Of a stretch of 64,000 nt of DNA, positions 2,955 to 17,438 are shown one piece after another. A program made the translations under genes and the position numbers. Where the stretch lies: positions 1,320,957 through 1,384,956 of the forward strand of contig NZ_LN869529.1 in assembly GCF_001244995.1 (NCBI RefSeq). The letters run 5' to 3'. The notes below the pieces were generated by a model. It did not search any database and was not told the origin of the DNA. It saw only the letters and a list, made by a program, of their open reading frames with translations. Source of the stretch: Intestinimonas massiliensis (ex Afouda et al. 2020) (GTDB lineage: Bacteria; Bacillota; Clostridia; Oscillospirales; Oscillospiraceae). Numbering within the stretch: position 1 is the stretch's first letter; each line of letters begins with the position of its first letter.

Positions 2955-2965
2955 AAGCCGCTACC

Positions 2966-3037
2966 TTAAAACAGGCCGGACAGCAGAGGGATCAGGGTGG
3001 TGCCCAGCAGGATGATGCCGCCGCCCGCCATGAGCTG
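2966..3037 (-). pseudogene. maff2, 3' fragment
   Basis: Reading leftwards from the junction, the frame gives QLMAGGG, then IILLGTTLIPLLSGLF and a stop at 2966-2968. This is the hydrophobic C-terminal half of a Maff2-type protein. The N-terminal half is 10.6 kb away at 13605-13763, and the two halves overlap at QLMA. The nested mobilizable element therefore split this gene. Loss of the second membrane helix probably inactivates Maff2. Confidence 0.85.
3027..3037. repeat. left junction repeat of nested element
   Basis: GCCATGAGCTG, matched with one mismatch by GCCATAAGCTG at 13612-13622. These mark the two ends of the element inserted in maff2 and probably contain the recombinase crossover core. 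Confidence 0.7.
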
Positions 3038-3135
3038 TTTTATCCCCAAATAGGAGTAAAACCTTGCTCGATGGCAGGCGGCGGCGTGTCAAAAAATATA
3101 TGGAATTGTTTTAGAACCGCCCCGGAGGGGACAGG

Positions 3136-4800
3136 TCAGCCCTTGACCTGTTCCACCTCCGGGATGGGTTTGAGATTGAAGTGAATTTCGATAGAAATGT
3201 GTCGTGTCTTATCGCTGTCGATGTGTTCATGGACAACGATTTCTTTAATCAGGCGGTTTAAGGTGGCGGCGTCCAACTCCGTGATGTCGGCATATTCCTG
3301 AATGGCGTCCACCCATTGTTTGGCGTCCATCGCCAGCCGCATTTCATCAGCCAGCTTCTTGCGTCCCTGTGCAACCCGTTCTTTCAACTCGGCCTGTTCC
3401 TTCTGCGTCTTGTCCAGCATGAGATTGAAGTTGGCTTCGCTGATCCGCCCGGCAACCATGTCCTCATAGAGCCGCAGCACCATCTTTTCCAGCACCTCAA
3501 TCCGTTCCTCGTCTTTTGTCAGGGAACGCTCCAACGCTTCCCGTTGGCCTTTCTGTTCGGCTTCGCAGGTGTCGGTCAGCTTCCCGGCAATGGCTTCCCC
3601 ATCGGTCAGGGCAGCCTTGGCGCAATCCCGGATTTTGTTCAGGACAAGGTGGTAAAGGGTGTCGTACTCCACCCGGTGCTGGGTGCAATGGTTCTTGCCA
3701 AACGCCCCATAGGTCTTACAGGCGTAAATCTGCTGCGGGTGCTTGGCGTGGGTGGTGCGGATGGTCAACGACTTGCCGCACTCGCCGCACTTGATAAGCC
3801 CGGCAAACAGGCTGGTTTCCCCGTCCTGCCGGGGGCGCTGGCGGGATTTCAGCTTGTCCTGCACGATGGCAAAACTTTTGCTGTCAATCAACGGTTCGTG
3901 CCGTTCCTCCACCACAATCCAGTCCTGCGGCTTCTTCTCGCCAATGGTTCCAATTTTGAAGCGGTAGTCCTTCTTTTGGGAAGCTATCGCCCCAGTATAA
4001 ACGGGATTCATCAGGATGTCTTTTATCACAGAGAAGTCCCACATATACCGCCCGTTTTCCGGGTCTTTCTTTTCCCATTTGGTGCGGACATTGCGGAAGC
4101 CCCGTTCCCGGTTCCACCATGTAGGGCAAGGCACCTTCTGTTCTTCCAGCCTGCGCCGGATGAAGTTGGGGCCGTGTCCTTCCAGCGCCCAAAGGAAGAT
4201 TTGCCGGACAATGGGGGCGGTTTCCTCGTCCACCAGCAGGTGGTTTTTGTCCTCTGGGTCTTTCCGATACCCAAAGGGAGCCACACAGCCGGTAAACTGG
4301 CCTTGCTGGGCTTTCAGAAGATACGAGGAATGTACCTTCTTGGAAATATCCTTGCTGTACATCTCATTCAGGATGTTCTTGAACGGCGCAATGTCGTTGT
4401 TGTCCCGCATGGTGTCGATACCGTCATTCATGGCGATATAGCGGACGCCGTGACGGGGGAAGAAGTCCTCGATCAGTGTGCCGGTCTGCAAGTAATTTCG
4501 GCCCAACCTCGATAAATCTTTCGTTATCACAAGATTTATCTGCCTGCGCTCGATGGCTTTTAACATCCGTTTCAGGTCGGGGCGCTCCATGTTCAGCCCC
4601 GTGTAGCCATCGTCCTGATAGACTGCCACAACCTCCCATCCCTGCTTTTCGCAGTAGCTTTCCAGCATATCCCGCTGGTTGGCAATACTGGCGCTCTCCC
4701 CGTCAAGGTCATCGTCTTTTGAAAGCCTGCAATAGATGGCCGCCCGGAAGCTGCCCGCCAGAATTGCGTCCATGCCTGTGTATTCGTATCCGTTCATCAT
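3136..4800 (-). CDS. large serine recombinase (TndX/TnpX-like) of nested element
   Basis: 554 aa. N-terminal resolvase domain with AIYCRLSKDD (catalytic Ser at about residue 27) and KDLSRLGRN. It is followed by a recombinase domain, a zinc-ribbon with CGECG near residue 347, a coiled coil at about 420-490 and a C-terminal EIHFN segment. This is the architecture of TndX-like integrases that excise and insert clostridial mobile elements without host factors. It is the leftmost gene of the nested element, next to its left junction, as expected. Other starts (internal Met) are possible within the first 10 residues. Confidence 0.93.
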   Translation of the reverse strand: MMNGYEYTGMDAILAGSFRAAIYCRLSKDDDLDGESASIANQRDMLESYCEKQGWEVVAVYQDDGYTGLNMERPDLKRMLKAIERRQINLVITKDLSRLGRNYLQTGTLIEDFFPRHGVRYIAMNDGIDTMRDNNDIAPFKNILNEMYSKDISKKVHSSYLLKAQQGQFTGCVAPFGYRKDPEDKNHLLVDEETAPIVRQIFLWALEGHGPNFIRRRLEEQKVPCPTWWNRERGFRNVRTKWEKKDPENGRYMWDFSVIKDILMNPVYTGAIASQKKDYRFKIGTIGEKKPQDWIVVEERHEPLIDSKSFAIVQDKLKSRQRPRQDGETSLFAGLIKCGECGKSLTIRTTHAKHPQQIYACKTYGAFGKNHCTQHRVEYDTLYHLVLNKIRDCAKAALTDGEAIAGKLTDTCEAEQKGQREALERSLTKDEERIEVLEKMVLRLYEDMVAGRISEANFNLMLDKTQKEQAELKERVAQGRKKLADEMRLAMDAKQWVDAIQEYADITELDAATLNRLIKEIVVHEHIDSDKTRHISIEIHFNLKPIPEVEQVKG

Positions 4801-4806
4801 AACCGT

Positions 4807-5004
4807 TTACCCGCACAATCCAGACGGAACACGGTTCTTCTGAACCTCGTCTCTATTATATCCTAAATCTTGTGTTTTCACAAGATTTTCCTCGCCGGTA
4901 TTCTGCCCATACTTTTGGGCAATCAGGCTTACAAAGACATCCGCTGCGTCCAGCTCGCCGTCAAAAACTGTGGTAACATGAATCTCTGTTTTCGTTTTTG
5001 CCAT
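4807..5004 (-). CDS. small recombinase-linked protein
   Basis: 65 aa, MAKTKTEIHVTTVFDGELDA, ending PSGLCG. It is immediately upstream of the serine recombinase and separated by six bases, so co-transcribed. I recognise the protein as a conserved companion of recombinases in Tn916-like clostridial elements but know no assigned function. It may act as a recombination directionality or expression-coupling factor; that is inference. Confidence 0.75.
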   Translation of the reverse strand: MAKTKTEIHVTTVFDGELDAADVFVSLIAQKYGQNTGEENLVKTQDLGYNRDEVQKNRVPSGLCG

Positions 5005-5030
5005 AGGCAGTTATCCTCCATAATAGAATA

Positions 5031-5104
5031 GCCAGACAAGGAGAAGGTCGGCAACGAAGTCCGGCAACGGGCTTCAAAAAACCTCAAAACCTTCTCTGTC
5101 TGGC
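5031..5104. terminator. stem-loop upstream of recombinase operon
   Basis: GCCAGACAAGGAGAAGGT (5031-5048) pairs imperfectly with ACCTTCTCTGTCTGGC region (5089-5104). It lies downstream of the helicase gene and before the recombinase unit and may insulate the two. Confidence 0.45.
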
Positions 5105-5245
5105 GGTTTGGTTACGATTTATATTTTCTTTTATTTTTCTGTTGCTTTGGTTGCTGATAGGGGAAAAAGCCCGCAGTTACGGGGCTTTCCCCGGCAACCA
5201 GCCCGGCAACGGGAGTGCAACAAAGTCGGCAACGGGGTGGGATTT

Positions 5246-6640
5246 TCAGAAAGGAAGCTCCATCTGCTCTGTGACTTCCACAAATCCCTCCAGGATTTTT
5301 CCGGCTCCGTTGCTGGTATCCGTTGCCGGGTTTTCACGCTCCCAGCCCTTTTGCCTGCCGTATTCCGGGAACATCCGGGGATTGGAAAAGTAGTGCCAGC
5401 CTGTGACACAATGGTTCATAATGTCGTTGATCTCCCGGATTTCCCATTGTTTCGGCTCGTCAAAGGGGTGGTTCAGGGCTTCCCGGAAAAGCTGCTTGGA
5501 ACACACTATGCTGCCGGTATAGCGGTCAAGGTAGGCTTGGATCATCCCGGCCTTGGTGTCCTCCGGCATGAAATCCCGCTGGTGTTCTTTGAGATAGCGC
5601 ACCATTTCGGGGCTGAAAGACAGCTTAAAATCCCCACTGCGGTAAATGGTCATGGCTTCCGCCCATAGCTGCTCCATGTAGGCTCTGGAAGCGGCTTCAT
5701 CGTCCAAAATATGAACTTCCGCCTGTTCCGGGTACACCATGACCGGCAGAAAGCGCCGGTTGCCGGAACGGTCAAGGGGCAGGAAGTCCAGGGCATTGGA
5801 AGTGCCGCCGAACACGCATTGCCGCAGCCTGTCCTCCGGGTGGGTTTCGTATGGGATTTTATAGACCTCCTTCTGTCGGCTCAAAAAAGACTTGATTTCC
5901 TCAATGCTCTTGGCGTTTGCGGTGGCGATCATCTCCGACATCTCAATAATCCAGTGGCCTTGCAGCTTGCGGTACACATTGTCATCGTCCAGCTTGCGAA
6001 GGTCATCGGAAAACCACTCGTCTTTCACGGCCAGCAGCCGGAAAAAGGTGGATTTTCCGGCGCCCTGGCCGCCCACCAGACAGAGCATGACCTCAAACTT
6101 GCAGCCGGGATGAAATGCCCGGTGGATGGCTCCCAGCAGAAACAGCCGCAGGGCTTCATAGGTGTACTGGTCGCTGTCGGCTCCTAAAAAGTGGTGCAGA
6201 CAGGTGCGGATACGCTCGGTTCCGTCCCATGAAAGGCCGTTCAGGTAGTCCCGGATGGGGTGATAGCCGTTTTCGTTGGCAACGATCCCGATGGCGGCGG
6301 CAATCTTCTTTTCGCTGGTCAGCCCATAGGTTTCTTCCAGATACAAAAGCAGATAGTTCATATCCGTGTCCGTGATGGCGGTGCCGGTACGGTGGTAGCC
6401 GATGGGCTTGATGATGTCGATGCGCTCGGTCAGCAGATTTTTTGCGATTGCCCCGGAAAGCAGCGGGTCATTCTGAAAGACGGTCAGGCAGTTGCGGATA
6501 CTGTTGCGGACGCCGCCTTTCTCGGTGCTTTCCAACATGGCTTTGACTTCACGGGCGTTCCGGGGCGGCGGTGTTTCTTGCATGGTCTGTTCTGCGGCCT
6601 GCCGTATCTCCGGCGGTAAGCTCTGCCATTCGTCTTTCAA
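5246..6640 (-). CDS. VapE/VirE-like replicative helicase
   Basis: 464 aa. Central P-loop GGQGAGKSTFF at about residue 180 and a Walker-B-like hydrophobic strand with WIIEMSEM around 222-229. SFLSRQKEVYKIPYE and GTSNALDFLPLDRSGNRRFLP follow, all hallmarks of the virulence-associated E superfamily of SF3-related helicases found in phage satellites and mobilizable elements. It follows the CHC2 primase gene and overlaps it by 92 bases if the start at 6640 is right, so the pair probably replicates the excised element. The true start may be a little further in. Confidence 0.87.
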   Translation of the reverse strand: MKDEWQSLPPEIRQAAEQTMQETPPPRNAREVKAMLESTEKGGVRNSIRNCLTVFQNDPLLSGAIAKNLLTERIDIIKPIGYHRTGTAITDTDMNYLLLYLEETYGLTSEKKIAAAIGIVANENGYHPIRDYLNGLSWDGTERIRTCLHHFLGADSDQYTYEALRLFLLGAIHRAFHPGCKFEVMLCLVGGQGAGKSTFFRLLAVKDEWFSDDLRKLDDDNVYRKLQGHWIIEMSEMIATANAKSIEEIKSFLSRQKEVYKIPYETHPEDRLRQCVFGGTSNALDFLPLDRSGNRRFLPVMVYPEQAEVHILDDEAASRAYMEQLWAEAMTIYRSGDFKLSFSPEMVRYLKEHQRDFMPEDTKAGMIQAYLDRYTGSIVCSKQLFREALNHPFDEPKQWEIREINDIMNHCVTGWHYFSNPRMFPEYGRQKGWERENPATDTSNGAGKILEGFVEVTEQMELPF

Positions 6641-7187
6641 GATTGCTCACTTCCTTTCCACAGTCGATGATAAGGGCTGCCCGTTCCTCCATGTCCGGGG
6701 AGAGCAGCACATCCAGCAAATAGTCCACATAGTCCTGCTTTTGCAGGGCTTCCACAAACAAAGGGTGGAAATCCTCGTCTGGCGTCTTGGGGGCATAGTC
6801 CCGTTTCCAGCGGCGCAGCAGGTTTCGATAGTCGCACAGCACCCGGAAGCAGTACCGTTCCATACGGCGGAACCGCTGTTCCGGGTTTTCCTGCGGTGGT
6901 TTCCTGTGGCTGGGCGGCTCCTTGTCCTCATAGGGGACGGAAAACGCCTGCGCCAGCATGAGGGCGGCTTCCTTGGGGCTGACAGCTTCCAGACGGGAAA
7001 CAAAGTCGATCACATCCCCGTCTGCCTGACAGCCGAAACAGTGAAAGCGCCGGTCAACCTTCATGCTTGGCTTTTTGTCGGCATGGAAGGGACAGACGCA
7101 CATCCCGTTTCGTCCCACCCGGACGCCGTAACGCTCGGCGGCCTGCCGGGTGGTAACAGACTGCTTGACAGCTTCAAATACATTCAA
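6549..7187 (-). CDS. CHC2 zinc-finger primase-like protein
   Basis: 212 aa from a TTG at 7187 preceded by AGGAGG at a six-base spacing. CPFHADKKPSM and FHCFGCQADGDVIDF at about residues 31-60 form the CHC2 zinc finger of DnaG-type primases. The rest is helical and lacks a recognisable Toprim domain, so it probably works with the downstream VapE-like helicase as the element's replication primase module. Confidence 0.87.
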   Translation of the reverse strand: MNVFEAVKQSVTTRQAAERYGVRVGRNGMCVCPFHADKKPSMKVDRRFHCFGCQADGDVIDFVSRLEAVSPKEAALMLAQAFSVPYEDKEPPSHRKPPQENPEQRFRRMERYCFRVLCDYRNLLRRWKRDYAPKTPDEDFHPLFVEALQKQDYVDYLLDVLLSPDMEERAALIIDCGKEVSNLERRMAELTAGDTAGRRTDHARNTAAPERP

Positions 7188-7250
7188 CTCAATCCTCCTG
7201 AACATAAGAAAAGCGCCTGTCATTCTCGAAAAGAAAATGGCAAGCGCCTG

Positions 7251-8840
7251 TTAAAGTTCTATATCCTGTTTTTTCTCTGTGCGGGGCTGCTGGCGTTTCT
7301 CGGCTTGTTCCTCCCGGATACGCTGCGCCCGACCTTTGACTGCCTGCTGGATGGACGGTTTCTTGCCCGGCTCGGCGGTCTGGCGGTACTGCTCGGACGG
7401 AAGCACCTGATTGAGCCAGTGGCGCACATCCCGGAGAATCTTCACATCCTCCTGCACCGCTGACAGGCGTTCCCTGTACTCGGCCATCTCTCCGGCAAGC
7501 TGCGTCCGTTCCTCGTTCAATTTCTTGGTGCTGTACTTGGTTCCCTCCAAATGCACCTTGAAATAGCGGACAGCGGCATTGTAGGCGTCCAGCTCGTCCC
7601 GATGGGCGGCGGCAAACTGTTCCTCTGGCTTCTTAAACCGGATGGCGGCATATTCCGCATGAACCGGCTTGTGGGCTTCAAAGTTGGCGATATGGGAAAG
7701 CATGGTGTCGATCTCCTTCATGCGTTTTTCCTTCGGCTTCATCTCTGCCCGGATGGAAACGGCCTGCTCGCTGACGGTATCCAGATAGGTGTCAAGGCTC
7801 TCCACGGTGGACAGCTCCTTTTCCCGCAGATAGCGGATAGCGTCCATTACTTTGTTGAAGTCATTTACAGTGCCTTTGAGCTGGCCTTTGCTCGTCCAGC
7901 CGGTGCGCTCCTCCCGGCGCAAATCCAGATATTTGCCCAGCAGCTCCGGCAGGATGGGTTCCTTCGCTTCCTGCAAGGCTTCCAGCAGAGCGGCCTTTTT
8001 CTCCTTCAGGTCTGCGATCCAGCCTTTCAGGTGACGCACCATCTGACGGATGGACTGCATAAGCCGGTTGGCAGCGGTAATATCCCGGTTGAGATTGCCG
8101 ATGTTGGTCTGTATCCCTCGTTTCTCCATCTGGCTGACCGCTGGCCCCATGTGGACGGTGGGGATTTTATCAAGCCCCTGCCGTTCATAGGAACGAAGGT
8201 CAAGGCGTTCCGGGCGGTCATTGGCTTCCAGATAGCGATTGGCGATAGCCGCCCAGCCCTGCCGCCATATCTCGGCGTACTTCTGGTCGTTCCAGTCTAC
8301 GGTGTCCTCCTTGTGGCTTTTCCAGTTCCCGGACGGGAGCCGGATACGCTCGCCGTTCTTGTCAAGGTCATAAACCTTCCGGCTCTTGGGAAGCCATTTC
8401 CCGGTTTCGTCCATTGCCCGCATGGTCAGCAAGATGTGGGCGTGGGGATTCCCGTCCCCCTTATCGTGAATGGCAAAATCGGCAATCATGCCTTTGGAAA
8501 CAAAAAACTCCCGGCAATAGTCCCGGATCAGGTCGGCGTGTTGCTCCGAGGGGATTTCCCTCGGTATGGCAAGTACGATCCTGCGGGCAAGCTGGGAGTT
8601 CCATTGTTTTTCTTGTGTCTCGGCAGCGTTCCACAAGATGTTGCGGTCTGCGTACTCCGGCGGTGCGTGGGGCGGCAGCATGATTTCCGTGTGGACAATT
8701 CCTCGTTTCTCGGAATAGTATTTCTGCTTCTGGTCGTACTCAGAAAACAGCCGTTCGCCGCTCTGGTAAGCTGCGGCGGCTACGGCTGACTGGCGGTTGC
8801 TGCGCTGGACGATTTTTATATCGTGGTGGGGACAGGGCAT
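7251..8840 (-). CDS. mobA: MobA/MobL family relaxase
   Basis: 529 aa from MPCPHHDIKIVQRS (ATG at 8840). The N-terminal MobA/MobL domain shows SAVAAAAYQSGE, and the HIHDK-like metal site appears as DFAIHDKGDGNPHAHILLT (HxH of the relaxase). A long Glu/Lys-rich coiled coil runs from about residue 270 to the end. The protein would nick oriT and pilot the single strand of the nested element through a helper secretion channel. A non-coding hairpin-rich stretch about 0.8 kb upstream is a candidate oriT. Confidence 0.93.
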   Translation of the reverse strand: MPCPHHDIKIVQRSNRQSAVAAAAYQSGERLFSEYDQKQKYYSEKRGIVHTEIMLPPHAPPEYADRNILWNAAETQEKQWNSQLARRIVLAIPREIPSEQHADLIRDYCREFFVSKGMIADFAIHDKGDGNPHAHILLTMRAMDETGKWLPKSRKVYDLDKNGERIRLPSGNWKSHKEDTVDWNDQKYAEIWRQGWAAIANRYLEANDRPERLDLRSYERQGLDKIPTVHMGPAVSQMEKRGIQTNIGNLNRDITAANRLMQSIRQMVRHLKGWIADLKEKKAALLEALQEAKEPILPELLGKYLDLRREERTGWTSKGQLKGTVNDFNKVMDAIRYLREKELSTVESLDTYLDTVSEQAVSIRAEMKPKEKRMKEIDTMLSHIANFEAHKPVHAEYAAIRFKKPEEQFAAAHRDELDAYNAAVRYFKVHLEGTKYSTKKLNEERTQLAGEMAEYRERLSAVQEDVKILRDVRHWLNQVLPSEQYRQTAEPGKKPSIQQAVKGRAQRIREEQAEKRQQPRTEKKQDIEL

Positions 8841-8969
8841 AACGGCTTCCTCCTTCCTGTGGGTGATTGGATGAGGTGGTGGTTTGCCACCGCATTTTGG
8901 GTAAAAGAAAAGCAGGAAACCGTTCAATGATTTCCTGCTCGGTGGTGCCGGTGGGCGGCTAATGTTTAG

Positions 8970-9179
8970 TTAATCAAAATAGAATAGTTCTTCAAACTTC
9001 TTGTCAAGGGCAATACATAAAATGAGTGCAAGTTTGGCGGTAGGGTTGAACTGACCTGTTTCAATCGAACTAATGGTGTTGCGGGAGACACCTACCATTT
9101 CTGCCAATGCCGCCTGCGATAGATTTTTTTCAACACGGGCTTCTTTGAGATGATTTTTAAGTGTCAATTCACCATTCAT
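8970..9179 (-). CDS. small XRE-family HTH repressor
   Basis: 69 aa starting MNGELTLKNHLKEARVEK at 9179. The helix-turn-helix reads LSQAALAEMVGVSRNTISSIE. Its ATG overlaps the stop of the membrane-protein gene (ATGA), so the two are translationally coupled. Pairs of short XRE regulator plus a two-helix membrane protein are common in Firmicutes and the regulator is usually autoregulatory. Confidence 0.87.
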   Translation of the reverse strand: MNGELTLKNHLKEARVEKNLSQAALAEMVGVSRNTISSIETGQFNPTAKLALILCIALDKKFEELFYFD

Positions 9180-9508
9180 AGAGCTACTCCAAACATACTG
9201 CAAGCAACCCCAATTAAAGCTAAAATAGTCGTAAAGCTCGCAGCAATCGATAAAAGCAAAAACACCTTACTCTTTTTGAATCTCCATTCTATAAATGTTT
9301 CTCCTGCAAGATATCCCAAAAACATTGCACGCACCCCATAGTCAATCTCGCTCTTGGTAATTATAGCAAGAAGCGCAATTATGACAAACACGAAACTGAA
9401 CATTGCTTGACCAATCAATCTCCCTTGATTTTTCATCTGTTTCGTTCCCTCATCAATGCCAAGCATACCTTCTTTTTGCGCCTTTGACAAAATATCTTCT
9501 TTTTTCAT
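9176..9508 (-). CDS. small membrane protein paired with XRE regulator (DUF6442-like)
   Basis: 110 aa. Hydrophilic N-terminus MKKEDILSKAQKEG, then hydrophobic segments at about 32-50, 58-72 and 83-108. It resembles the DUF6442 group of short membrane proteins that precede a Cro/CI-like regulator in Firmicutes. Function unknown. Upstream, the A+T-rich stretch 9530-9600 with repeated AAGTATACTTGGTA-like half-sites may be the operator of the regulator. Confidence 0.72.
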   Translation of the reverse strand: MKKEDILSKAQKEGMLGIDEGTKQMKNQGRLIGQAMFSFVFVIIALLAIITKSEIDYGVRAMFLGYLAGETFIEWRFKKSKVFLLLSIAASFTTILALIGVACSMFGVAL

Positions 9509-9529
9509 AAATTCATCTCCTTACTTGTT

Positions 9530-9580
9530 ATCGCCAAGTATACTTGGTATCTTTAGAATAGCATTACCAAGTTTACTTGT
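9530..9580. promoter_or_regulatory. operator-like repeats upstream of XRE pair
   Basis: Three spaced copies of a motif close to CCAAGTATACTTGG (CCAAGTATACTTGG near 9534-9547; ACCAAGTTTACTTG near 9564-9577) lie just upstream of the leftward membrane-protein/XRE pair. A palindromic site in this place suggests an autoregulatory operator. Confidence 0.55.
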
Positions 9581-9634
9581 CAATAGATTGTGCAAAGTTT
9601 TCTGTGCAAACTTTGCGGGCGGCATATTCGTAAA

Positions 9635-9805
9635 GGGGTAGCTGGCGGCAGCCAGCGCAGGGGGAAGTGTAGCTTCCCCCTGTGATGATTGGAAGCAGCC
9701 GCAAGTGTGCTGTCAATCATCTGCTTTCCGCAGGAAGCCCCCGGCAGGGCACAACACACCAGCTTGACCGGTGTATAGTTGCGCCCTTACTCCGTAAGGG
9801 GTTCC
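9635..9805. other. candidate oriT / hairpin cluster
   Basis: No gene. Several inverted repeats occur: AGGGGGAAG/CTTCCCCCT around 9660-9682, CTGGCGGCAGCCAG near 9641, and CCCTTAC-TCC-GTAAGGG at about 9784-9800, overlapping the end of the next gene. Repeats next to a GCGCCCTTAC stretch recall origins of transfer used by MobA/MobL relaxases. Assignment is by position and structure only. Confidence 0.4.
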
Positions 9806-10086
9806 CCAGCTACCCGACCTTTCACGCTTTCCGCAACAACTTCTTTCATGTCAGTTTGGGAAAATGCCTGTTTCAGAATGTCCATCACGTCATCGTCCGT
9901 CAGCACTTCCGGCCTTATCAGGAAACTTTCCAGCATAGCTCCTCTGGTACAAAGCCGGTGCGTCCGTTCTTTCCGGGTAAGCTGTTTTATCTGGTGTGCC
10001 AGTATCTTTTCTTCGTGCTGCGCCCGCCGCAGTCTGGCTTCGCCTTTGGCAAGCTCCCGGTTGAGTTTTTCCAGCTTTTCATTCAT
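9787..10086 (-). CDS. DUF3847-like small protein
   Basis: 99 aa from MNEKLEKLNRELAKGEARLR (ATG at 10086). A coiled-coil N-terminal half carries LTRKERTHRLCTRGAMLES, a pattern I associate with DUF3847 proteins encoded next to replication initiators in clostridial mobilizable elements. Its start overlaps the stop of the upstream initiator-like gene. Function unknown. Confidence 0.75.
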   Translation of the reverse strand: MNEKLEKLNRELAKGEARLRRAQHEEKILAHQIKQLTRKERTHRLCTRGAMLESFLIRPEVLTDDDVMDILKQAFSQTDMKEVVAESVKGRVAGEPLTE

Positions 10087-10420
10087 CACGGCAGCCCTCC
10101 TTCTTGGGGAGCAGCGTGTAAATACGGTTCGGTTCTCCCACACCCCGGCGCACCCGCAGGATCAGTCCGGCGTCCTCCAATTCTTTCAAGGAACGCTTGA
10201 CGGTTACGGAGCTTCGGGACAAGGCCGCCGCCAGCTCCACAATGGGGAAACGGACAAACAGTATCCCGTTGGTATCCTCCGTACCCACCGTAAGGGTGGC
10301 GTCCAGCAGGCGGGCATACATGACCTTTGCGGTGCTGCTGACCGGCAGCCGCAACATGGCGGGGGGAAGTGGCATACAGGGCGGCAGAACGGTATCTGCG
10401 GTCATAAATTCAAATTCCAT
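10079..10420 (-). CDS. winged-helix replication-initiator-like protein
   Basis: 113 aa. LSSTAKVMYARLLDA-like and SRSSVTVKRSLKELEDAGLILRV segments match the N-terminal winged helix of RepA-type initiators and DnaD-like proteins; the C-terminus is short. In comparable elements this gene is called a replication initiator, but only the DNA-binding domain is present here, so it could equally be a regulator of the primase/helicase genes. Confidence 0.65.
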   Translation of the reverse strand: MEFEFMTADTVLPPCMPLPPAMLRLPVSSTAKVMYARLLDATLTVGTEDTNGILFVRFPIVELAAALSRSSVTVKRSLKELEDAGLILRVRRGVGEPNRIYTLLPKKEGCRDE

Positions 10421-10606
10421 TTAGTCGGTTTTCTCCTTTCGCTTGGCTCGTTTGGACAGGTAACAGGGGCAGTCGATCACGACAGCCCGGAAGCTCTGTT
10501 TGCACTCATGCTGACACTTCCGGCACAGGTCGTTGTAGGTCACACGCCCCCGGTCATTGAGGAAGAAGGACAGCTCCAACTTCCGTTTCTTGCTCATTCT
10601 CGGCAT
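10421..10606 (-). CDS. small cysteine-containing protein
   Basis: 61 aa from MPRMSKKRKLELSFF (ATG at 10606, GGAGG four bases upstream). Four cysteines in CRKCQHECK and DCPCYL suggest a zinc knuckle. It starts the leftward replication operon of the nested element. No function recognised. Confidence 0.65.
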   Translation of the reverse strand: MPRMSKKRKLELSFFLNDRGRVTYNDLCRKCQHECKQSFRAVVIDCPCYLSKRAKRKEKTD

Positions 10607-11138
10607 GGTGCCTCCTATCATAGAAAATCCGCCCATTTCAGCCGTAACGGTAGAGATGGGCGGATAGCGGTTTTTGGTGTCATGTTTCGGGGCGATTTTC
10701 AAGGAAAATACGGCCATAGAGCCGCTTGGAAAAGCCCCATAGTATCACGGACAGGGCAGACTACGCCCCGCCGATTTGTCATGTTTGGGTAGCGTTTTGG
10801 TGTCAGTTCTGCCGGGTTTCCCTGATGTCGTTCCTGCCCCTGAATCTCACAGCAGCGTTTCGTTCCCGTTGGTACGCTCGCTGCGGTCAAGGTTCCTCCA
10901 ACTCCTTGCCGCAGGTCGTTGCGCTACATCGCCGGGGAGCATATCCCATCAGGCCGGTCATTCGATTGGAATAATCCATCGATGAACTGACTTAATCATA
11001 GCTCATTTTTGAACCCTTTCCCGTATGTCCAGAAAGTAGGAATACCGCCCCAAAATCGAAAATTTCCACGATTTCGGAACGGTATGGTATAATGGCTATA
11101 TATGCTCGAAAACCACATGGAAAGGAAGTGGCAAACCG
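10607..11138. other. 532-bp intergenic region between divergent units
   Basis: No convincing gene. It holds a hairpin ATCCGCCCAT/ATGGGCGGAT (10627-10665) and a stretch 10740-10980 without coding character. Near the right end, AAATCGAAAATTTCCACGAT-like inverted half-sites (CGAAAT/ATTTCG, about 11057-11076) are followed by TATAAT at 11088-11093, which probably drives the rightward XRE gene. Confidence 0.5.
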
Positions 11139-11960
11139 ATGAAAGACCATGTTTCCTTACAGGAACGCTTGAAAGATTTACGGGTGGAAAAGGGCTTGAA
11201 GCTGGAAGAACTGGCGGAAAAGACCGGCATTTCAAAATCTGCTTTGGCAAGCTATGAAAATGAAGAAAACCGAAATAAGGAAATCAATCACGGCAACCTT
11301 ATCACACTGGCAGACTTTTATGAGGTGTCCATTGACTATCTGTTCTGCCGGACAGAAAACCGGGAGCAGATCAACACCCCGCTGTCTGAACTGCATTTGA
11401 CCGATGAAGCCGTGGCGCTTCTGAAAAGCGGACGGATCAATACCCGGCTGCTGTGCGAGATGATGTCCCACGAAAAATTTGCGGAACTGATGGCTGACGC
11501 AGAAATCTATGTGGATGGAATGGCTACCATGCGGTTCCATGACCTCAACAGTGCGCTGGCCGCTGTCCGGGTAATGATACTGGAAGAGCATCCCGAAGCC
11601 GCCGCAGACCGTTCCCTGAAAATTCTGGAAGCCGGTCAGATAGAGGAAGAAGATTTTTTCTGCCATGTGACACACAAAACATGGGACACAATCCTTCACG
11701 ATATACGCAAAGCCCATGAGAACGACATGGAGAGTGCGCCGGATACCACGCCCGCCGATGAACTAATAAAGGCAGTCCGAAAGGCCATGCAGTCCACCGG
11801 CGATAGGGTGCAGGAATTTTTGGAAATCTTCTGCAAGGCGTTCCAGCTGAAATACAAGCGGCTCACAGACGAGGAAAGAGTGACCCTGAAAAGACTGTTC
11901 AAAAGATCGCCACTGATTAAAAATTCCGGGATCAACTTCCGGCGCAGGCCGTGGAAATGA
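11139..11960 (+). CDS. XRE-family regulator of nested element
   Basis: 273 aa. The N-terminal HTH is LKLEELAEKTGISKSALASYE at about residues 22-42, followed by IDYLFCRTEN, typical of Cro/CI regulators. A long alpha-helical C-terminal region has no recognised motif. It is divergent from the replication operon, with GGAAGTGGCAAACCG upstream, and probably controls the element's excision or replication genes from the shared intergenic region. Confidence 0.88.
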   Translation: MKDHVSLQERLKDLRVEKGLKLEELAEKTGISKSALASYENEENRNKEINHGNLITLADFYEVSIDYLFCRTENREQINTPLSELHLTDEAVALLKSGRINTRLLCEMMSHEKFAELMADAEIYVDGMATMRFHDLNSALAAVRVMILEEHPEAAADRSLKILEAGQIEEEDFFCHVTHKTWDTILHDIRKAHENDMESAPDTTPADELIKAVRKAMQSTGDRVQEFLEIFCKAFQLKYKRLTDEERVTLKRLFKRSPLIKNSGINFRRRPWK

Positions 11961-12003
11961 AAACTGCCGTTGTGGGAACGGGTGTTCCTGCAACGGCAGT
12001 TTT
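11960..12003. terminator. bidirectional terminator
   Basis: AAAACTGCCGTTG (11960-11972) pairs with CAACGGCAGTTTT (11991-12003). It lies between two convergent genes, with T-runs on both strands. Confidence 0.85.
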
Positions 12004-12006
12004 GAA

Positions 12007-12771
12007 TCATATATGAATTTGGAAGTCTCGAAACTCAAACAATCCATTTCCCTGTTTGAGTTTTCCGGCTCTCGATAATTGTGCAAATCCGGCTTCAATG
12101 TCACCTATCAAAGAAACAGGAATATCCAACTGGTGGTGTCCGGGCAGAACTTTTTTTATTTTGTATTTCTGTATCCGCCTTATGGATTGATAAAATAGTT
12201 GCGGATCAGTAGTTGGGTAAAATGCGTCAAGGCTTCCTTTGTATATCAAATCCCCGGAATACAAGTAATTTCTTTCTGGCTCGTAAAAGCAACAATGTCC
12301 GGGAGAATGTCCCGGCGTGTGAATAACCTGAATTTCCCGTCCGCCTAAATTCAGAAAATCTCCATCCTGCAAGATTCTTTGTGGCATACCTTGAAATATC
12401 TGATAGGCGTTAATATCAAAATCTCTTGGAAAATTACAAGGAAGTCTTGTTAAATTGTTCTTTACAACTTGCAACGGTATCGGAAACCTGACTGATAACC
12501 AGTCCTTTTCCGCTTCATATACAGCGATATTATCAAAATACTTATGCCCGCCGATGTGATCCCAATGAACATGAGTAGTAATTGCCATAACAGGCAGCTC
12601 TGTTAGACTGTCCACAATTTTTCTGATGTTGGAAACGCCTAAGCCTGTATCAATGAGAATAGCGCATTTTTCTCCACATAATAGATAGCAATGTGTTTCT
12701 TCCCAGTGTTTGTATTCGCTAATAGAGAATGTATCACGGTCTATTTGCTCAATGGTAAACCAATTATCCAT
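12007..12771 (-). CDS. MBL-fold metallo-hydrolase
   Basis: 254 aa. The metal-binding motif HVHWDHIGGH is near residue 87, a further His is in HTPGHSPGHCC near 157-167, and an Asp is in YSGDLIYKG, the normal metallo-beta-lactamase-fold set. The class includes glyoxalase II-like and lactonase enzymes; the substrate is not readable. It is followed upstream by an NTF2-like protein and an XRE regulator, suggesting a small cargo cassette of the nested element. Confidence 0.87.
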   Translation of the reverse strand: MDNWFTIEQIDRDTFSISEYKHWEETHCYLLCGEKCAILIDTGLGVSNIRKIVDSLTELPVMAITTHVHWDHIGGHKYFDNIAVYEAEKDWLSVRFPIPLQVVKNNLTRLPCNFPRDFDINAYQIFQGMPQRILQDGDFLNLGGREIQVIHTPGHSPGHCCFYEPERNYLYSGDLIYKGSLDAFYPTTDPQLFYQSIRRIQKYKIKKVLPGHHQLDIPVSLIGDIEAGFAQLSRAGKLKQGNGLFEFRDFQIHI

Positions 12772-12806
12772 TCTGCATAATTACCTCCAACAACTAAATT
12801 TCCCGG

Positions 12807-13226
12807 CTAAAACCACTTTGCGTTTTCATCTCTGAAATGTGGTATAGTGCCATCTTTATAAGGGTCATATCGATTTTCATTGCAACCAAATTCTTTTAAG
12901 AGGGCAATCTTGTCATCTGGTGTCCATTCAATCAGTGATATTCCATCAAACGCTTCTACATTACCGTCGTCCATTTTATTCTTAAAATACCATTCAACGA
13001 TAGTCTGATTGTCTTTATGGAAAAACTGTTTGATGTCCCATTGTAAGACGGTTCCCCGGGTATTCCATTCCTCAAACCAAAGTATTATCTTCTTTATTCC
13101 GTGATATTCCGGCCCCCAGCTTTCAATATAGATGGCATTATTTGAAAAAATATCGGATATACCTAAATCTTTCTTTGTAAGCCACATATCAAACCAAAGT
13201 CTGATAATTCTTTCTCTATTGTCCAT
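12807..13226 (-). CDS. NTF2-like / SnoaL-like protein
   Basis: 139 aa. RIIRLWFDMWLTKKD, GIKKIILWFEEWNTRGTVL and WYFKNKMDDGNVEAFDGISLIEW match the cone-shaped NTF2-like fold used by small-molecule-binding enzymes and unknown stress proteins. Probably co-transcribed with the MBL hydrolase 36 bases downstream. No catalytic role can be assigned. Confidence 0.72.
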   Translation of the reverse strand: MDNRERIIRLWFDMWLTKKDLGISDIFSNNAIYIESWGPEYHGIKKIILWFEEWNTRGTVLQWDIKQFFHKDNQTIVEWYFKNKMDDGNVEAFDGISLIEWTPDDKIALLKEFGCNENRYDPYKDGTIPHFRDENAKWF

Positions 13227-13244
13227 TTCGCAGAACCTTCCTTG

Positions 13245-13469
13245 TTAATTTGATATTTCAGCTTCTTCGTCATGCTCTAATTCAATCACATTCAAAATTC
13301 CACAGTTCAATGCTTTGCAGATACGCAGTAGTGTTTCCATACTGATATGCTTTCCCTTGCCCATGTTGGCAATCATATTGGTGGTCAGACCGGCGGACAG
13401 CCGCAAGTCCTCTTTCCTCATGCCACGCTCTTTCAAAGTGTCCCATAGCGGTTGATAGCTGATGTGCAT
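13245..13469 (-). CDS. short XRE-family regulator
   Basis: 74 aa. LSAGLTTNMIANMGKGKHIS and LLRICKALNCGILNVIE make up a YozG-type HTH protein of a single domain. It precedes the NTF2-like and MBL genes by 18 bases and is the probable regulator of that cargo operon. Confidence 0.85.
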   Translation of the reverse strand: MHISYQPLWDTLKERGMRKEDLRLSAGLTTNMIANMGKGKHISMETLLRICKALNCGILNVIELEHDEEAEISN

Positions 13470-13604
13470 AGGCTCCCGCCTCTCTTTCCATCGTCAAATG
13501 TTCTGTACCCATTATAGCAGAAATCTTGCGTTTCCACAATATTTCTTGACCGCACCGCCGGTTCCGTCTGGATTGTGCTTTTCCTTTCTTCACTTTTATT
13601 ACAT

Positions 13605-13763
13605 TTAATTAGCCATAAGCTGCTTCATGCCCTGGCTTTTGGAACCAGGGTTGTCCGAGCCGTAGCCCTCAAGCAAATTGACAACGCCCCACACGCCCAG
13701 ACCAGCGCCGAGAGCCACAACAAGGGTCTGCAAAGTATCAATAGCGGAAGAAAAGAACTGCAT
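13605..13763 (-). pseudogene. maff2, 5' fragment
   Basis: 52 codons from MQFFSSAIDTLQTLVVALG (ATG at 13763, GGAGG upstream), ending GMKQLMAN and a stop contributed by the nested element. The first transmembrane helix and the SKSQG loop are of the Maff2 family, which follows virD4 in Tn1549-like elements. The C-terminal half is at 2966-3037. Confidence 0.87.
13612..13622. repeat. right junction repeat of nested element
   Basis: GCCATAAGCTG; partner of 3027-3037, one mismatch. Confidence 0.7.
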
Positions 13764-13834
13764 ATAGCCTCCATTTCTCCGGGGTTTTTCCCGGCCATGA
13801 AAAAAGCCGCCCATGCAGGCGGCAGGTTACGACC

Positions 13835-13853
13835 TCTGGACACTTTGTCCAGA
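13835..13853. repeat. GGACA-N3-TGTCC palindrome, CTGG class (site 3)
   Basis: TCTGGACA-CTT-TGTCCAGA, perfect arms. It is intergenic between the old virD4 3' remnant and maff2. Confidence 0.85.
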
Positions 13854-13861
13854 AGTGCTGT

Positions 13862-13918
13862 TTATACAAAGGCGTCCGGGTCATCGAGATCGTCATAGTC
13901 GAGGATGTCCTCGTCCTC
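13862..13918 (-). pseudogene. orphan 3' end of virD4 (displaced copy)
   Basis: Read leftwards this encodes EDEDILDYDDLDDPDAFV and a stop, nearly the same as the C-terminus of the intact virD4 at 15140-15208 (EDEDILNYDDVDDPDAFI). Codons differ at many third positions. The two share an exact 18-bp run at 13901-13918 and 15179-15196. This is the original 3' end, cut off when the HNH insertion brought in a replacement. Confidence 0.85.
13901..13918. repeat. left direct repeat of HNH insertion
   Basis: GAGGATGTCCTCGTCCTC, identical to 15179-15196. Confidence 0.85.
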
Positions 13919-14028
13919 TTATATGAGTACAATGCCTACATGTACGCTTTGCATAACTTTTGATTGTGCGATTTCGATTTATTTGATATTATTGATATAA
14001 ATAATAAGGCTTTAATAGAGGTGTTTCG

Positions 14029-14790
14029 ATGAGTTTTCCAGAAAATGTTGCGATTGAAGCGTTGACATTATGTGGCCGCTGCTGTTGTATCTGCCACAAG
14101 TTTTGCGGAACAAAAATTGAGTTGCATCACATAGAGCAAAAGGCCTATGGGGGCAAGGATACTTTAGAGAATTGCATTCCACTATGTTTTGATTGTCATT
14201 CCGAGATGGGCAAAGCTGACCCAAAACATCCTAAAGGAAAAAGATATTCTACGGAAGAACTGAAACGCCATAGGGATAATTGGTATAGAAAAGTAAATAG
14301 TGATGGAATTTCTGTAAATAATAGCGAAAAGACTATATTTACAGAAGATATTGAATCATTTCAAACAATATGTGCTCTGTTTACTCCAACCGTCAAGTGT
14401 TGGCTTATTGAAGAAGATATTGGGGGAACTCACCCATACAATGTGTTTGATGGGTTAGCCAAATATCTAAATGATACTTATGATGATCCTTTTTCAGAAT
14501 TTATAAATCCAGAACTAGAGAAAATGCGAGGTAATTTGATTAATTCTATTAAAGCATTTTTGAATTACAAATCCATGAACACATTTGTAAAGGATGTTTT
14601 TGGGCAAGAATTGTGTGTAACTCGCGCGTGGATGATTAGTCATGAAGATTGGATTCCACATTCCATGAGTTATGAAGAATGCTCAATACAGTATGCCAAA
14701 GAGTCTCAAACCCTAAATGATCTGGCAACAAAAGTTTGGAAAACTTACTGTGAATTTGTTCGCCAATGTCGTTTTTTGCTAGCTCAATAG
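14029..14790 (+). CDS. HNH endonuclease
   Basis: 253 aa. The N-terminal HNH domain has CGRCCCICHKFC (about 15-26), LHHI (32-35), Asn in ENCIPLC (48-53) and FDCHSE, the second zinc pair plus His. Residues 90-253 form a helical domain of unknown type with FTPTVKCWLIEED. The gene is much richer in A+T than its neighbours and oriented opposite to the transfer operon. It could be a homing-type nuclease that moves the segment or a defence nuclease carried as cargo. Confidence 0.87.
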   Translation: MSFPENVAIEALTLCGRCCCICHKFCGTKIELHHIEQKAYGGKDTLENCIPLCFDCHSEMGKADPKHPKGKRYSTEELKRHRDNWYRKVNSDGISVNNSEKTIFTEDIESFQTICALFTPTVKCWLIEEDIGGTHPYNVFDGLAKYLNDTYDDPFSEFINPELEKMRGNLINSIKAFLNYKSMNTFVKDVFGQELCVTRAWMISHEDWIPHSMSYEECSIQYAKESQTLNDLATKVWKTYCEFVRQCRFLLAQ

Positions 14791-14859
14791 CAGTATCACA
14801 AATAATGCTAAAATGAATTATCAATAGACTTTGAATATTTATAAAAAGGGAGAATTGTT

Positions 14860-15096
14860 ATGAGAAAAGAGTTAACACCGGAGCTGAAAAAATGCAAAGA
14901 AGAATTTGATTTTCTTCATAAAAAAATTGGTGAACTAGAGTGGGAACTTGCAACAGTATATTATGGCCGCGAGGCAGTCCTCAGATCACAAATTGAATTG
15001 TTAGAAACACAAATTGAGAATTATAGAGTTAATATTGCAATTTTAGTAGATAAAGTTCGAGACGAGGTGTCAAAAGCAAACCATAAATCGCGATAG
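14860..15096 (+). CDS. small coiled-coil protein
   Basis: 78 aa, MRKELTPELKKCKEEFD, strongly helical and charged with heptad-like Leu/Ile spacing from residue 10 to 70. GGGAG lies upstream. It follows the HNH gene by 70 bases in the same orientation and is probably its partner or inhibitor. No homologue recognised. Confidence 0.6.
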   Translation: MRKELTPELKKCKEEFDFLHKKIGELEWELATVYYGREAVLRSQIELLETQIENYRVNIAILVDKVRDEVSKANHKSR

Positions 15097-15105
15097 ATTT
15101 TATGC

Positions 15106-15135
15106 CCCCATTCCGGTTGTTAAACTGGAATGGGG
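15106..15135. terminator. terminator of HNH operon
   Basis: CCCCATTCC-GGTT pairs with AAACT-GGAATGGGG and is followed by a T-run. It separates the HNH unit from the convergent virD4 gene. Confidence 0.8.
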
Positions 15136-15139
15136 ATTT

Positions 15140-16975
15140 TTATATAAAGGCATCCGGATCGTCCACATCATCGTAGTTGAGGATGTCCTCGTCCTCGCTT
15201 ACGGGCCCCGCGTCCGATACGTCTACCTCGTACACCTCACAAGCCTCATTCAGCCCAGGCCGCCTGCGGCGGTTAATGAGTTTATCAAGGTCAAAGGCGT
15301 TTTTCTTTTTATCGGCCTCAGCCGTGTACTTGTAGTTCGGGTGCTGCTTCAAATCGTATTTGGACGAGAAGAACGGGGGCAGGCCCCGCAGCTGCAAAAT
15401 GCACTTATCGCCCGGCATGGTAGCCAGCTCACTGGGGGTCATCAGCTCCCGGCCCAGCCGCTGGGTGTTTTGGTTGTAGCTTTCCGACTGCCCACGGGAG
15501 CGGCCCTCGGTCTGCATGGAGATCGTGGCCTTGCCCAGCCAGTTTTCGGAAATTTCCTTGATGGTGGAGCTTTCCCGCCCGCCCAGGAAAACCACGCTGT
15601 CCATGTTTCCCAGGATTGTTTCGGCGTTGTCCTTGTATATGGCCTTGCATTGAGCGTACTGCTGGTAGAACAGGCACAGACTTACCTCACGAGAACGGAT
15701 CACGGCCACCAGCTTCTCCAGCGAGGGCACCTGGCCCGTGTTGGCCGCCTCGTCCCACAGCACCCGCACATGATGGGGCAGGCGGCCACCGTGAACATTG
15801 TCCGCCCGTTCACACAAGAGATTGAACATCTGCGAAAAGGCCAGGGCAACAATGAAGTTATAAGTGGGGGTTGTGTCGGAAATCGTGAAGAAAACCGCCG
15901 TTTTCCGATCCCCGATGCGGTCAAGCTCCAGCTCGTCATAGCTCATGATCTCCCGGAGTTGGGGGATGTCAAAGGGGGCCAGTCGGGAGCCGCAGGAAAT
16001 CAAAATGCTTTTTGCGGTCTTGCCGCTTGCCAGCTTATATTTCTTGTACTGCTTCACGGCAAAGCAATCCGGCTTGCGCTTTTCCAGGCCCTTAAACATA
16101 TAGTCCACCGCGTTCATATAGGACTCGTCATCCTCTTTCACGTCCATGCCGGAAATGATATCCACCAGGGTATTGATGTTCCGATCCTCGGCGGGGGCCT
16201 CGAAAATGATATAGGCAATCAGGGCGCAGTACAAAAGCGTTTCCGCCTTCGTCCAAAATGGATCGCCCTCCTTGCCCTCGCCTTTGGTGTTGGCTATGAG
16301 GGTGTCCACGAATTTGAGGATGTCCGCCTCGTTGTGAATGTAGGACAACGGATTGTAGTGCATGGATTTTGAAAAATCTATGCTGTTGAACACTTTGACC
16401 TGATACCCCCGGCGTTGCAGAAAAGCCCCCACCTGGGAGAGTACCCCGCCTTTCGGATCGACGCATACATAGGAGCTGTGCGCCTGGAGCAGTTGGGGCG
16501 TGAGCCAGAAACGGGTTTTGCCGGAGCCGGACGAGCCGATGATACAGGCGTTGAGATTGCGGGCGTTGGCGGGATTTTTGGGCCGGGTGTTCATAGTGAG
16601 AAACTCCGTCTTTGTCAAAATGACGTTGTTCTCAAACTTCGGATCGACAAAGGGCTTGATGTCTTTTTCGGTGCCCCAGCGGGCCGACCCGTATTCCTCA
16701 TCCCGCCGAAATTTCTTTGCGTTCTTGCTTTTGAAGTAGATCAGCAGGCGAAAGCCCACCGCGCCCACAATGCCTATGAGCCAGTCAAAGGAGGCCAGCC
16801 CCGGCGCAAAGTCAGCAAAGGCCGGGCCGATGCTCTGCCCCAGGCCCATGAGCTTGTGAGCAAAGTCTGCTCCGGGGGCCAGACGGTAGGCCGTCCCCAG
16901 CTTTAGGCAGGCCCACAGAATAAATAGGTACGGGATATTGGGTATCACATACTTTTTGACGCTATCTGTCCTCAT
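15140..16975 (-). CDS. virD4: VirD4/TraG-family type IV coupling protein
   Basis: 611 aa from MRTDSVKKYVIPNIP (ATG at 16975). Two N-terminal membrane segments (about 12-30 and 64-82), P-loop GSSGSGKT at 147-154, Walker B in VRVLWDEAANTG, and VFLGGRESSTIKEISENWLG near the C-terminus. It couples the relaxosome to the secretion channel. Its last ~19 codons, from the acidic DEDILNYDDVDD stretch on, were supplied by the HNH insertion; a displaced older 3' end lies at 13862-13918. It overlaps pcfB by 14 bases. Confidence 0.95.
   Translation of the reverse strand: MRTDSVKKYVIPNIPYLFILWACLKLGTAYRLAPGADFAHKLMGLGQSIGPAFADFAPGLASFDWLIGIVGAVGFRLLIYFKSKNAKKFRRDEEYGSARWGTEKDIKPFVDPKFENNVILTKTEFLTMNTRPKNPANARNLNACIIGSSGSGKTRFWLTPQLLQAHSSYVCVDPKGGVLSQVGAFLQRRGYQVKVFNSIDFSKSMHYNPLSYIHNEADILKFVDTLIANTKGEGKEGDPFWTKAETLLYCALIAYIIFEAPAEDRNINTLVDIISGMDVKEDDESYMNAVDYMFKGLEKRKPDCFAVKQYKKYKLASGKTAKSILISCGSRLAPFDIPQLREIMSYDELELDRIGDRKTAVFFTISDTTPTYNFIVALAFSQMFNLLCERADNVHGGRLPHHVRVLWDEAANTGQVPSLEKLVAVIRSREVSLCLFYQQYAQCKAIYKDNAETILGNMDSVVFLGGRESSTIKEISENWLGKATISMQTEGRSRGQSESYNQNTQRLGRELMTPSELATMPGDKCILQLRGLPPFFSSKYDLKQHPNYKYTAEADKKKNAFDLDKLINRRRRPGLNEACEVYEVDVSDAGPVSEDEDILNYDDVDDPDAFI
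15179..15196. repeat. right direct repeat of HNH insertion
   Basis: GAGGATGTCCTCGTCCTC, identical to 13901-13918, here inside virD4. Confidence 0.85.
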
Positions 16976-17438
16976 GCACCGCCTCCCTTGCACGTTCTCT
17001 CTTGTGGGACGGCTGGCGGGCCAGTTCAACGGCAGCCCGTTTGAGCTGTTCCCGGATGGGAACACGCTGGGACTTGGAACGCTTCATCACACGCCGGGAA
17101 TACTCCGAAAAGCAAGTGGTGATGGCGTCGGCCTGCCCGCTCTTGAAAAACAACAGGTATTTGTCCGGCCCGGTCTTATAAAAGGCATAGTCCACATTCC
17201 AACGCCGGGCCACCCGGTCAAAATCCTTTGGGGACTCCACCTCGATGCTGTTCGTGGCGGCCCCGTGGCCCATGAGCTGGCGCACCGTCTGTTTTCCGTG
17301 AGGTGTCTGGCGGGCACGGTACGTTTTCTTAATCTTCCGGCCCACCGCCAGACACGCCTGGGCCAGCACCCGGCCCGTGAGCTTTGTCGCCTTGATCGAA
17401 ACTGCTATGGTACGTCTGGAAACGTCCTCGTCAATCAG
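16962..17438 (-). CDS. pcfB: PcfB family conjugation protein
   Basis: About 158 aa. SIKATKLTGRVLAQACLAVGRKIKK near the N-terminus and the VRQLMGHGAATNSIEV segment are typical of PcfB/DUF3801 proteins, which accompany the VirD4 coupling protein and bind relaxosome components. The family start aligns with a CTG codon at 17438 placed six bases after AAAGGAGG; the only conventional upstream codon in frame (GTG, 17468) precedes the Shine-Dalgarno. A CTG start is unusual and unproved. Confidence 0.85.
   Translation of the reverse strand: MIDEDVSRRTIAVSIKATKLTGRVLAQACLAVGRKIKKTYRARQTPHGKQTVRQLMGHGAATNSIEVESPKDFDRVARRWNVDYAFYKTGPDKYLLFFKSGQADAITTCFSEYSRRVMKRSKSQRVPIREQLKRAAVELARQPSHKRERAREAVHEDR

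What the first reader, a model, noticed from the sequence alone, without database searches (positions are those of the whole stretch)
13862..15208. HNH insertion that gives virD4 a recoded 3' end
An A+T-rich 1.28-kb block with an HNH nuclease and a small protein sits at the 3' end of virD4. The old 3' end (13862-13918) remains on the far side; the new one encodes nearly the same peptide with other codons. There is an 18-bp direct repeat. This is the logic of mobile elements that enter gene ends without harm, but here the only candidate enzyme is an HNH protein. It may be a homing unit of a conjugation gene.
Basis: partly seen in the sequence, partly recalled or inferred. Interest (0 to 1): 0.75.

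Follow-up and report, generated by a model that had tools for sequence, protein, structure and literature searches.

The report
Defence-gene slot at virD4's end
In a family of gut-bacterial conjugative elements, the end of the DNA-export gene virD4 is a recurrent landing spot for small, mostly defence-type genes, each flanked by a second copy of virD4's last 50-130 bases; the HNH nuclease gene in this window is one such cargo, and no evidence singles it out as a homing gene.

Summary
A 1.22-kb A+T-rich block (13919-15139) with an HNH gene and a small coiled-coil gene lies between two 57-bp copies of the virD4 3' end (48/57 identical, 18 bp perfect). A relative (G061, 71% HNH) sits at the same spot, and uninterrupted relatives exist. 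The interpretation needs two corrections. (1) The copy now ending virD4 is not recoded. At the 9 sites where the copies differ, the two closest empty relatives (93.6% and 89.8% identical upstream) match virD4's own copy at 7. The displaced copy is the foreign one. (2) The block is not HNH-specific. Of 19 surveyed elements with this tail, 5 have it duplicated around an insert at this place. The cargo is HNH (twice), AbiO/Nhi, a DUF4145 protein (PD-T7-4-like) and a 703-aa protein of no known family. The duplications are nested (about 54-129 bp), all ending at the proximal virD4 stop, with no recombinase inside. HNH relatives often sit in restriction-modification loci. Best reading: a recurrent cargo slot, mostly for defence-type genes, filled by recombination that duplicates the target end, as in 'insertion with long target duplication' of restriction systems. 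Homing by the HNH protein is unproven and not needed.

The parts
15140..17065 (-). virD4/TcpA-type coupling protein gene, CD1115 family, intact reading frame
   Evidence: NCBIfam NF045973 9e-160; Pfam PF02534
15140..15196 (-). proximal copy of the virD4 3' end (last 18 codons and stop), native-like
   Evidence: 53/57 to empty relative G200 and 51/57 to G339
13862..13918 (-). distal, displaced copy of the virD4 3' end; foreign-like, no longer part of a gene
   Evidence: 48/57 to G200 and 46/57 to G339; preceded by an in-frame stop
13901..13918 (.). 18-bp perfect direct repeat, distal copy
15179..15196 (.). 18-bp perfect direct repeat, proximal copy
13919..15139 (.). inserted A+T-rich cargo block
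   Evidence: absent in G200, G339, G232, G237 and other relatives, where virD4 is followed at once by the intergenic hairpin and maff2
14029..14790 (+). HNH nuclease gene, 253 aa; conserved Zn/HNH N-terminal domain and a helical C-terminal domain of unknown fold
14860..15096 (+). 78-aa predicted coiled-coil protein, no family; absent from the G061 version of the block
15106..15135 (+). intrinsic terminator of the cargo, abutting the virD4 stop
   Evidence: fold z = -4.2
13605..13814 (-). maff2 5' part, the gene that follows virD4 in empty relatives
   Evidence: PF12750 4e-31
13806..13853 (.). native intergenic hairpins between virD4 and maff2; sequence after the distal stop is native-like (intergenic 90-92% to G200/G339)

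Best explanation
The virD4 3' end of this ICE clade is a recurrent acquisition slot for small genes, mostly defence-type. A cargo cassette (gene, promoter, terminator) is joined to the virD4 stop codon, and the last about 54-129 bp of virD4 are duplicated on its far side, so neither virD4 nor maff2 is broken. SHOWN: the duplication, its recurrence with unrelated cargo, the common end at the virD4 stop with variable starts, empty alleles, and absence of recombinase families. INFERRED: cassettes are captured when conjugated ICE DNA carrying some virD4-end homology recombines with a resident ICE, by single crossover of a circularised fragment or by homology on one side and illegitimate joining on the other. 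They then spread between ICEs by ordinary recombination in virD4/maff2. INFERRED: the HNH protein acts as a restriction-type or other defence nuclease and is cargo.
For: Five of 19 tail-bearing ICEs have the tail twice at this place, with different cargo: HNH+coiled-coil (window), HNH (G061), 295 aa + AbiO/Nhi (G078, 9e-149), DUF4145/PD-T7-4-like (G381, 3.8e-9), 703-aa protein of no family (G370). The repeats end at the proximal stop and start at about -129, -99, -93, -57 and -54 nt; inserts in two other virD4 lineages have none. G305 is a near-isogenic empty allele of G370 (97% on both sides; distal tail 56/57). HNH-domain relatives lie in RM loci: L026, L030, L035 by PADLOC and L037 by its similar flanking methyltransferase. 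The window HNH and distal tail join in the same register as in G061, so the module has one origin. In E. coli conjugation, one-end-homologous DNA gave duplications in 56 of 60 clones (PMC3240628).
Against: Five occupied sites only. The native/foreign call in the window rests on nine sites. The G370 duplication is nearly perfect except the last 13 nt, which a simple single crossover with a diverged donor does not explain. Defence function of the HNH and of the 703-aa cargo is not shown. A full-length HNH relative (L026) is also flanked by a gene-end duplication, of the hsdR 5' end, so a special role of the HNH is not excluded.
Confidence: 0.62

Rival explanations
1. Homing unit: the HNH protein cuts uninterrupted virD4 3' ends; repair from the occupied ICE copies the block together with a protected virD4 end, as in fungal mitochondrial mobile ORFs.
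For: HNH catalytic residues intact. Two ICE lineages carry the HNH at the same site with the same junction. A third full-length relative (L026) is flanked by a duplicated hsdR start. Fungal mtDNA units have the same anatomy (PMC3630166).
Against: Three of five blocks at the site have no HNH but the same duplication. In the window the end on virD4 is native and the displaced end foreign, the reverse of the fungal case. HNH and flanks differ by similar amounts between window and G061 (about 73%), no sign of a recent sweep. HNH-domain relatives sit in RM loci.
Confidence: 0.12
2. Site-specific integration (or a decayed remnant of it) with the virD4 3' end as attachment site, the recombinase acting in trans.
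For: Recurrent site, gene end preserved, direct repeats; integrative elements use gene ends in this way. In the window and in G381 the pattern of matches to empty relatives fits one reciprocal switch inside the tail (1 exception each).
Against: No recombinase family in any of the five blocks. Repeat starts vary over 75 bp. Inferred switch points conflict (window after nt 45, G370 before 45, G381 between 8 and 42), so no fixed core is seen.
Confidence: 0.1
3. Old cargo inherited by descent, with the duplication produced once and the two copies diverging in place.
For: HNH, distal tail and maff2 diverge to a similar extent between window and G061 (about 73%).
Against: Window and G061 flanks are no closer to each other than to empty ICEs; the closest relatives of the window ICE are empty; the distal copy changes are almost all synonymous or conservative, although it is no longer coding.
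Confidence: 0.12

Closest known systems
Insertion with long target duplication of restriction-modification units (Nobusato 2000 and Furuta 2010, as cited in PMC3031569)
   Same: Cargo of restriction/defence type, long and variable direct duplication of the target, empty alleles in relatives, no transposase in the insert
   Different: Here one gene end is used repeatedly, all duplications share one end (the virD4 stop), the host is an ICE, and the copies in the window are from different lineages. The two original papers were not held and were not read.
Fungal mitochondrial mobile ORFs (Allomyces/Glomus atp6, atp9, cox2, nad3; PMC3630166)
   Same: Nuclease ORF at a gene's 3' end, duplicated end on the far side, hybrid gene intact
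   Different: There every unit carries an endonuclease and the displaced copy is native; here three of five carry no such enzyme and in the window the displaced copy is the foreign one
Homology-facilitated illegitimate recombination and displaced effector/immunity or Rhs gene ends (PMC3240628, PMC5361080)
   Same: Homology anchor in a conserved gene end, foreign cargo joined to it, old gene end left downstream
   Different: Here the replaced end codes for nearly the same peptide and the cargo is transcribed convergently on its own promoter (promoter inferred)
IMEs in conserved ICE genes (virD4/traG, maff2; PMC5704250)
   Same: Conserved ICE conjugation genes used as landing sites; such elements occur in this very ICE and its relatives
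   Different: IMEs carry a serine recombinase and disrupt the gene; these blocks do neither

Membership tests
Homing endonuclease unit (fungal mtDNA mORF type) | Each inserted unit encodes the endonuclease | tested here: not met
   G078, G370 and G381 blocks lack an HNH and encode AbiO/Nhi, a 703-aa protein and DUF4145
Homing endonuclease unit (fungal mtDNA mORF type) | New gene end is foreign, displaced end is native | tested here: not met
   Window: reverse at 7 of 9 informative sites. G370 alone fits, in its last 13 nt
Homing endonuclease unit (fungal mtDNA mORF type) | Enzyme cuts the empty but not the occupied site | not testable with these tools
   Needs protein
Insertion with long target duplication | Long, variable direct duplication of target DNA flanks the insert | tested here: met
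   about 54-129 bp in five ICEs
Insertion with long target duplication | Related genome holds a single-copy empty site | tested here: met
   G200, G339, G305 and others
Insertion with long target duplication | Both copies derive from the same target | tested here: inconclusive
   Clear in G370 (near-perfect 129 bp apart from the last 13 nt); in the window the distal copy is of another lineage
Insertion with long target duplication | Insert carries a restriction/defence gene | tested here: inconclusive
   AbiO/Nhi and PD-T7-4-like by PADLOC; HNH only by weak profile match (mREase_IV 4e-5) and by neighbourhood of relatives
Site-specific integrative element or CIME | Recombinase, or fixed attachment core at both ends | tested here: not met
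   No recombinase found; variable repeat starts and conflicting switch points
Group I/II intron or other known RNA element | Structured RNA around the insertion point | tested here: not met
   No Rfam match up to E=1 in 13600-15400
Anti-phage defence nuclease (RM-associated HNH) | Protects against phage | not testable with these tools
   Only context: HNH-domain relatives next to type I and type II RM genes

The most novel reading that the evidence does not exclude
A cassette system not yet described: small genes, mostly of defence type, travel as units that carry a copy of virD4's 3' end and insert by a single crossover (or an unknown recombinase in trans) at the virD4 stop of conjugative elements. 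The HNH family may itself promote such gene-end insertions, since three full-length clostridial relatives (window, G061, L026) are all flanked by gene-end duplications, at two unrelated genes.
Probability: 0.13. Interest if true: 0.75.

Novelty: new variant of a known kind. Interest (0 to 1): 0.45.

Why it matters
It names a definite slot in a common family of gut ICEs where small, mostly defence-type genes are gained without breaking conjugation, with empty and filled alleles side by side, one pair 97% identical on both flanks. That makes a long-standing question, how restriction and abortive-infection genes insert with long target duplications and no transposase, testable on natural allele pairs. 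It also warns that a nuclease inside a gene-end duplication is not by itself evidence of homing.

Tried and rejected
Fold search of the HNH model: N-terminal part poorly predicted (mean pLDDT 67.5), best PDB hits E > 0.04, not used. Rfam: nothing. Plasmid collection for the virD4 region: only distant virD4/Maff2 loci, no closer occupied site in the records listed. Small protein: no relatives in plasmids. HNH in phages: none. DNA repeats around the more distant HNH relatives (L027-L039): none clearly above shuffles; L030 scored only marginally above. Class-wide tail survey: three more single-copy ICEs, no further duplication. Assembly artefact: unlikely, since duplications occur in five genomes, two in single-contig assemblies (G370, G078). 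The reciprocal-switch test is suggestive but has too few sites to prove a single crossover.

Full report
OBSERVATION. The window is part of a 3.1-Mb, 7-contig genome (G000). virD4 (minus strand, 17065-15140) is a complete CD1115-family coupling protein. Its last 57 nt (15140-15196) recur at 13862-13918 with 48 of 57 identities and an 18-bp perfect stretch, 1278 bp away; the local alignment score is 71 against at most 24 in shuffles. Between them lie an HNH gene (14029-14790), a 78-aa gene (14860-15096) and a terminator on the cargo strand at 15106-15135. The block is 31-40% GC, virD4 about 55%.

EMPTY AND FILLED RELATIVES. In 400 genomes of the family, virD4 relatives without the block go straight from the virD4 stop to a short hairpin-containing spacer and maff2. 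A scan for the degenerate tail found 19 elements, five of which have the tail twice, about 1.0-2.6 kb apart: the window, G061, G078, G370 and G381. All five are at the same place, and all cargos are convergent to virD4. Cargo: HNH plus coiled coil (window); HNH, 71% identical (G061); a 295-aa protein plus AbiO/Nhi (G078, PADLOC 9e-149); a DUF4145 protein similar to PD-T7-4 (G381, 3.8e-9); a 703-aa protein without family matches (G370). None encodes a recognisable recombinase. Three more tail-bearing elements outside the family have one copy. Two inserts in other virD4 lineages lack a repeat.

ANATOMY. The duplications form a nested set: they share an end at the virD4 stop of the proximal copy and start at about -129 (G370), -99 (G381), -93 (G078), -57 (window) and -54 (G061). 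A hairpin that can end cargo transcripts lies just inside the cargo in the window, G061, G078 and G381, folding far better than shuffles; the G370 hairpin was cut off by the stretch folded and was only read by eye.

WHICH END IS NATIVE. The closest empty relatives, G200 and G339 (93.6% and 89.8% over the 800 bp upstream), agree with the proximal copy at 7 of the 9 sites where the copies differ; the whole tail is 53/57 and 51/57 identical proximally against 48/57 and 46/57 distally. The spacer after the distal stop is again native-like (90-92%). So virD4 kept its own end, apart perhaps from the last codons, and the displaced 57 bp are foreign. In G370 the opposite holds for a short stretch: against G305 (97% on both flanks) the distal tail is native (56/57) and only the last 13 nt of the proximal end are foreign. 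Both patterns fit recombination inside or next to the tail. A P-to-D switch explains the window with one exception of nine sites, G381 with one of five, and G370 with none, but the sites are too few to prove a single crossover. The switch points disagree, which speaks against a fixed attachment core.

THE HNH PROTEIN. Its N-terminal HNH/zinc domain is conserved with diverse C-terminal parts. HNH-domain relatives sit inside restriction-modification loci: L026 (hsdS, a TIR gene, HNH, hsdR), L030 (after a type II methyltransferase and restriction gene), L035 (next to type II/IIG methyltransferases), and L037, whose flanking gene resembles that of L035. No relative was found in 50,697 phage records. 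Profile matches are to McrA-like and IscB-type HNH domains, all weak. This favours a restriction-type or defence nuclease, by inference only. L026 deserves attention: the HNH gene lies between a 147-bp partial copy of the hsdR start and the intact hsdR. The intact start is closer to the empty relative (129/144) than the partial copy (115/140). So the same protein family is flanked by a gene-end duplication at an unrelated gene. That is either another case of the general phenomenon or a hint that the HNH matters.

DESCENT. Window and G061 HNH, promoter region, distal tail and maff2 align collinearly at 73% with the tail junction in the same register, so that module formed once. Their flanks are no closer to each other than to empty elements.

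MECHANISM. Most likely, conjugated element DNA carrying cargo and some virD4-end homology integrates in a resident element. Such DNA with homology at one end gave mainly single-crossover duplications in an E. coli test (56 of 60 clones; PMC3240628). Formed cassettes then move by ordinary recombination. The capture step itself is inferred. The nearest published phenomenon is insertion of restriction systems with long and variable target duplication (PMC3031569, citing Nobusato 2000 and Furuta 2010, which I could not read). The nearest look-alike is the fungal mitochondrial mobile ORF (PMC3630166), whose defining features, an endonuclease in every unit and a native displaced end, are not met here.

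VERDICT. Real and recurrent; a cargo slot rather than a demonstrated homing unit.

Noticed in passing
window 2955-13610: Between TrbL_2 (2088-2954) and the maff2 5' part (13605-13814) lie a serine recombinase (3136-4800), VapE, CHC2 primase-like, MobA/MobL relaxase and XRE genes: an integrative mobilizable element sitting in or next to maff2, a known kind of site (PMC5704250). Part of it (10162-12013) is 95% identical to DNA beside the maff2 of a second ICE in the same genome.
   Followed up: partly
window about 16024 (virD4 internal), in relatives G031, G078, G082, G143, G155, G128: virD4 is split at the same point by inserts of about 9-65 kb, most likely IMEs in the internal traG site described in PMC5704250.
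   Followed up: no
L026:5761-6912: HNH relative between a 147-bp partial copy of the hsdR 5' end and the intact hsdR in a type I restriction locus; the partial copy looks foreign.
   Followed up: partly
L102:4516-6627: 703-aa protein in the G370 virD4 block with no Pfam, NCBIfam or PADLOC match; it looks by eye like a GHKL-type ATPase and is a candidate new defence gene.
   Followed up: no
window 12007-13469: Metallo-beta-lactamase-fold, SnoaL-like and XRE genes downstream of maff2, absent (apart from XRE) beside the second ICE copy: possible cargo of the IME.
   Followed up: no
L105 after the distal tail (L105:6660-6800) and L108 after the virD4 stop: Palindromic repeat-like sequences in the virD4-maff2 spacer of G381 and G082 that lengthen the spacer.
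   Followed up: no
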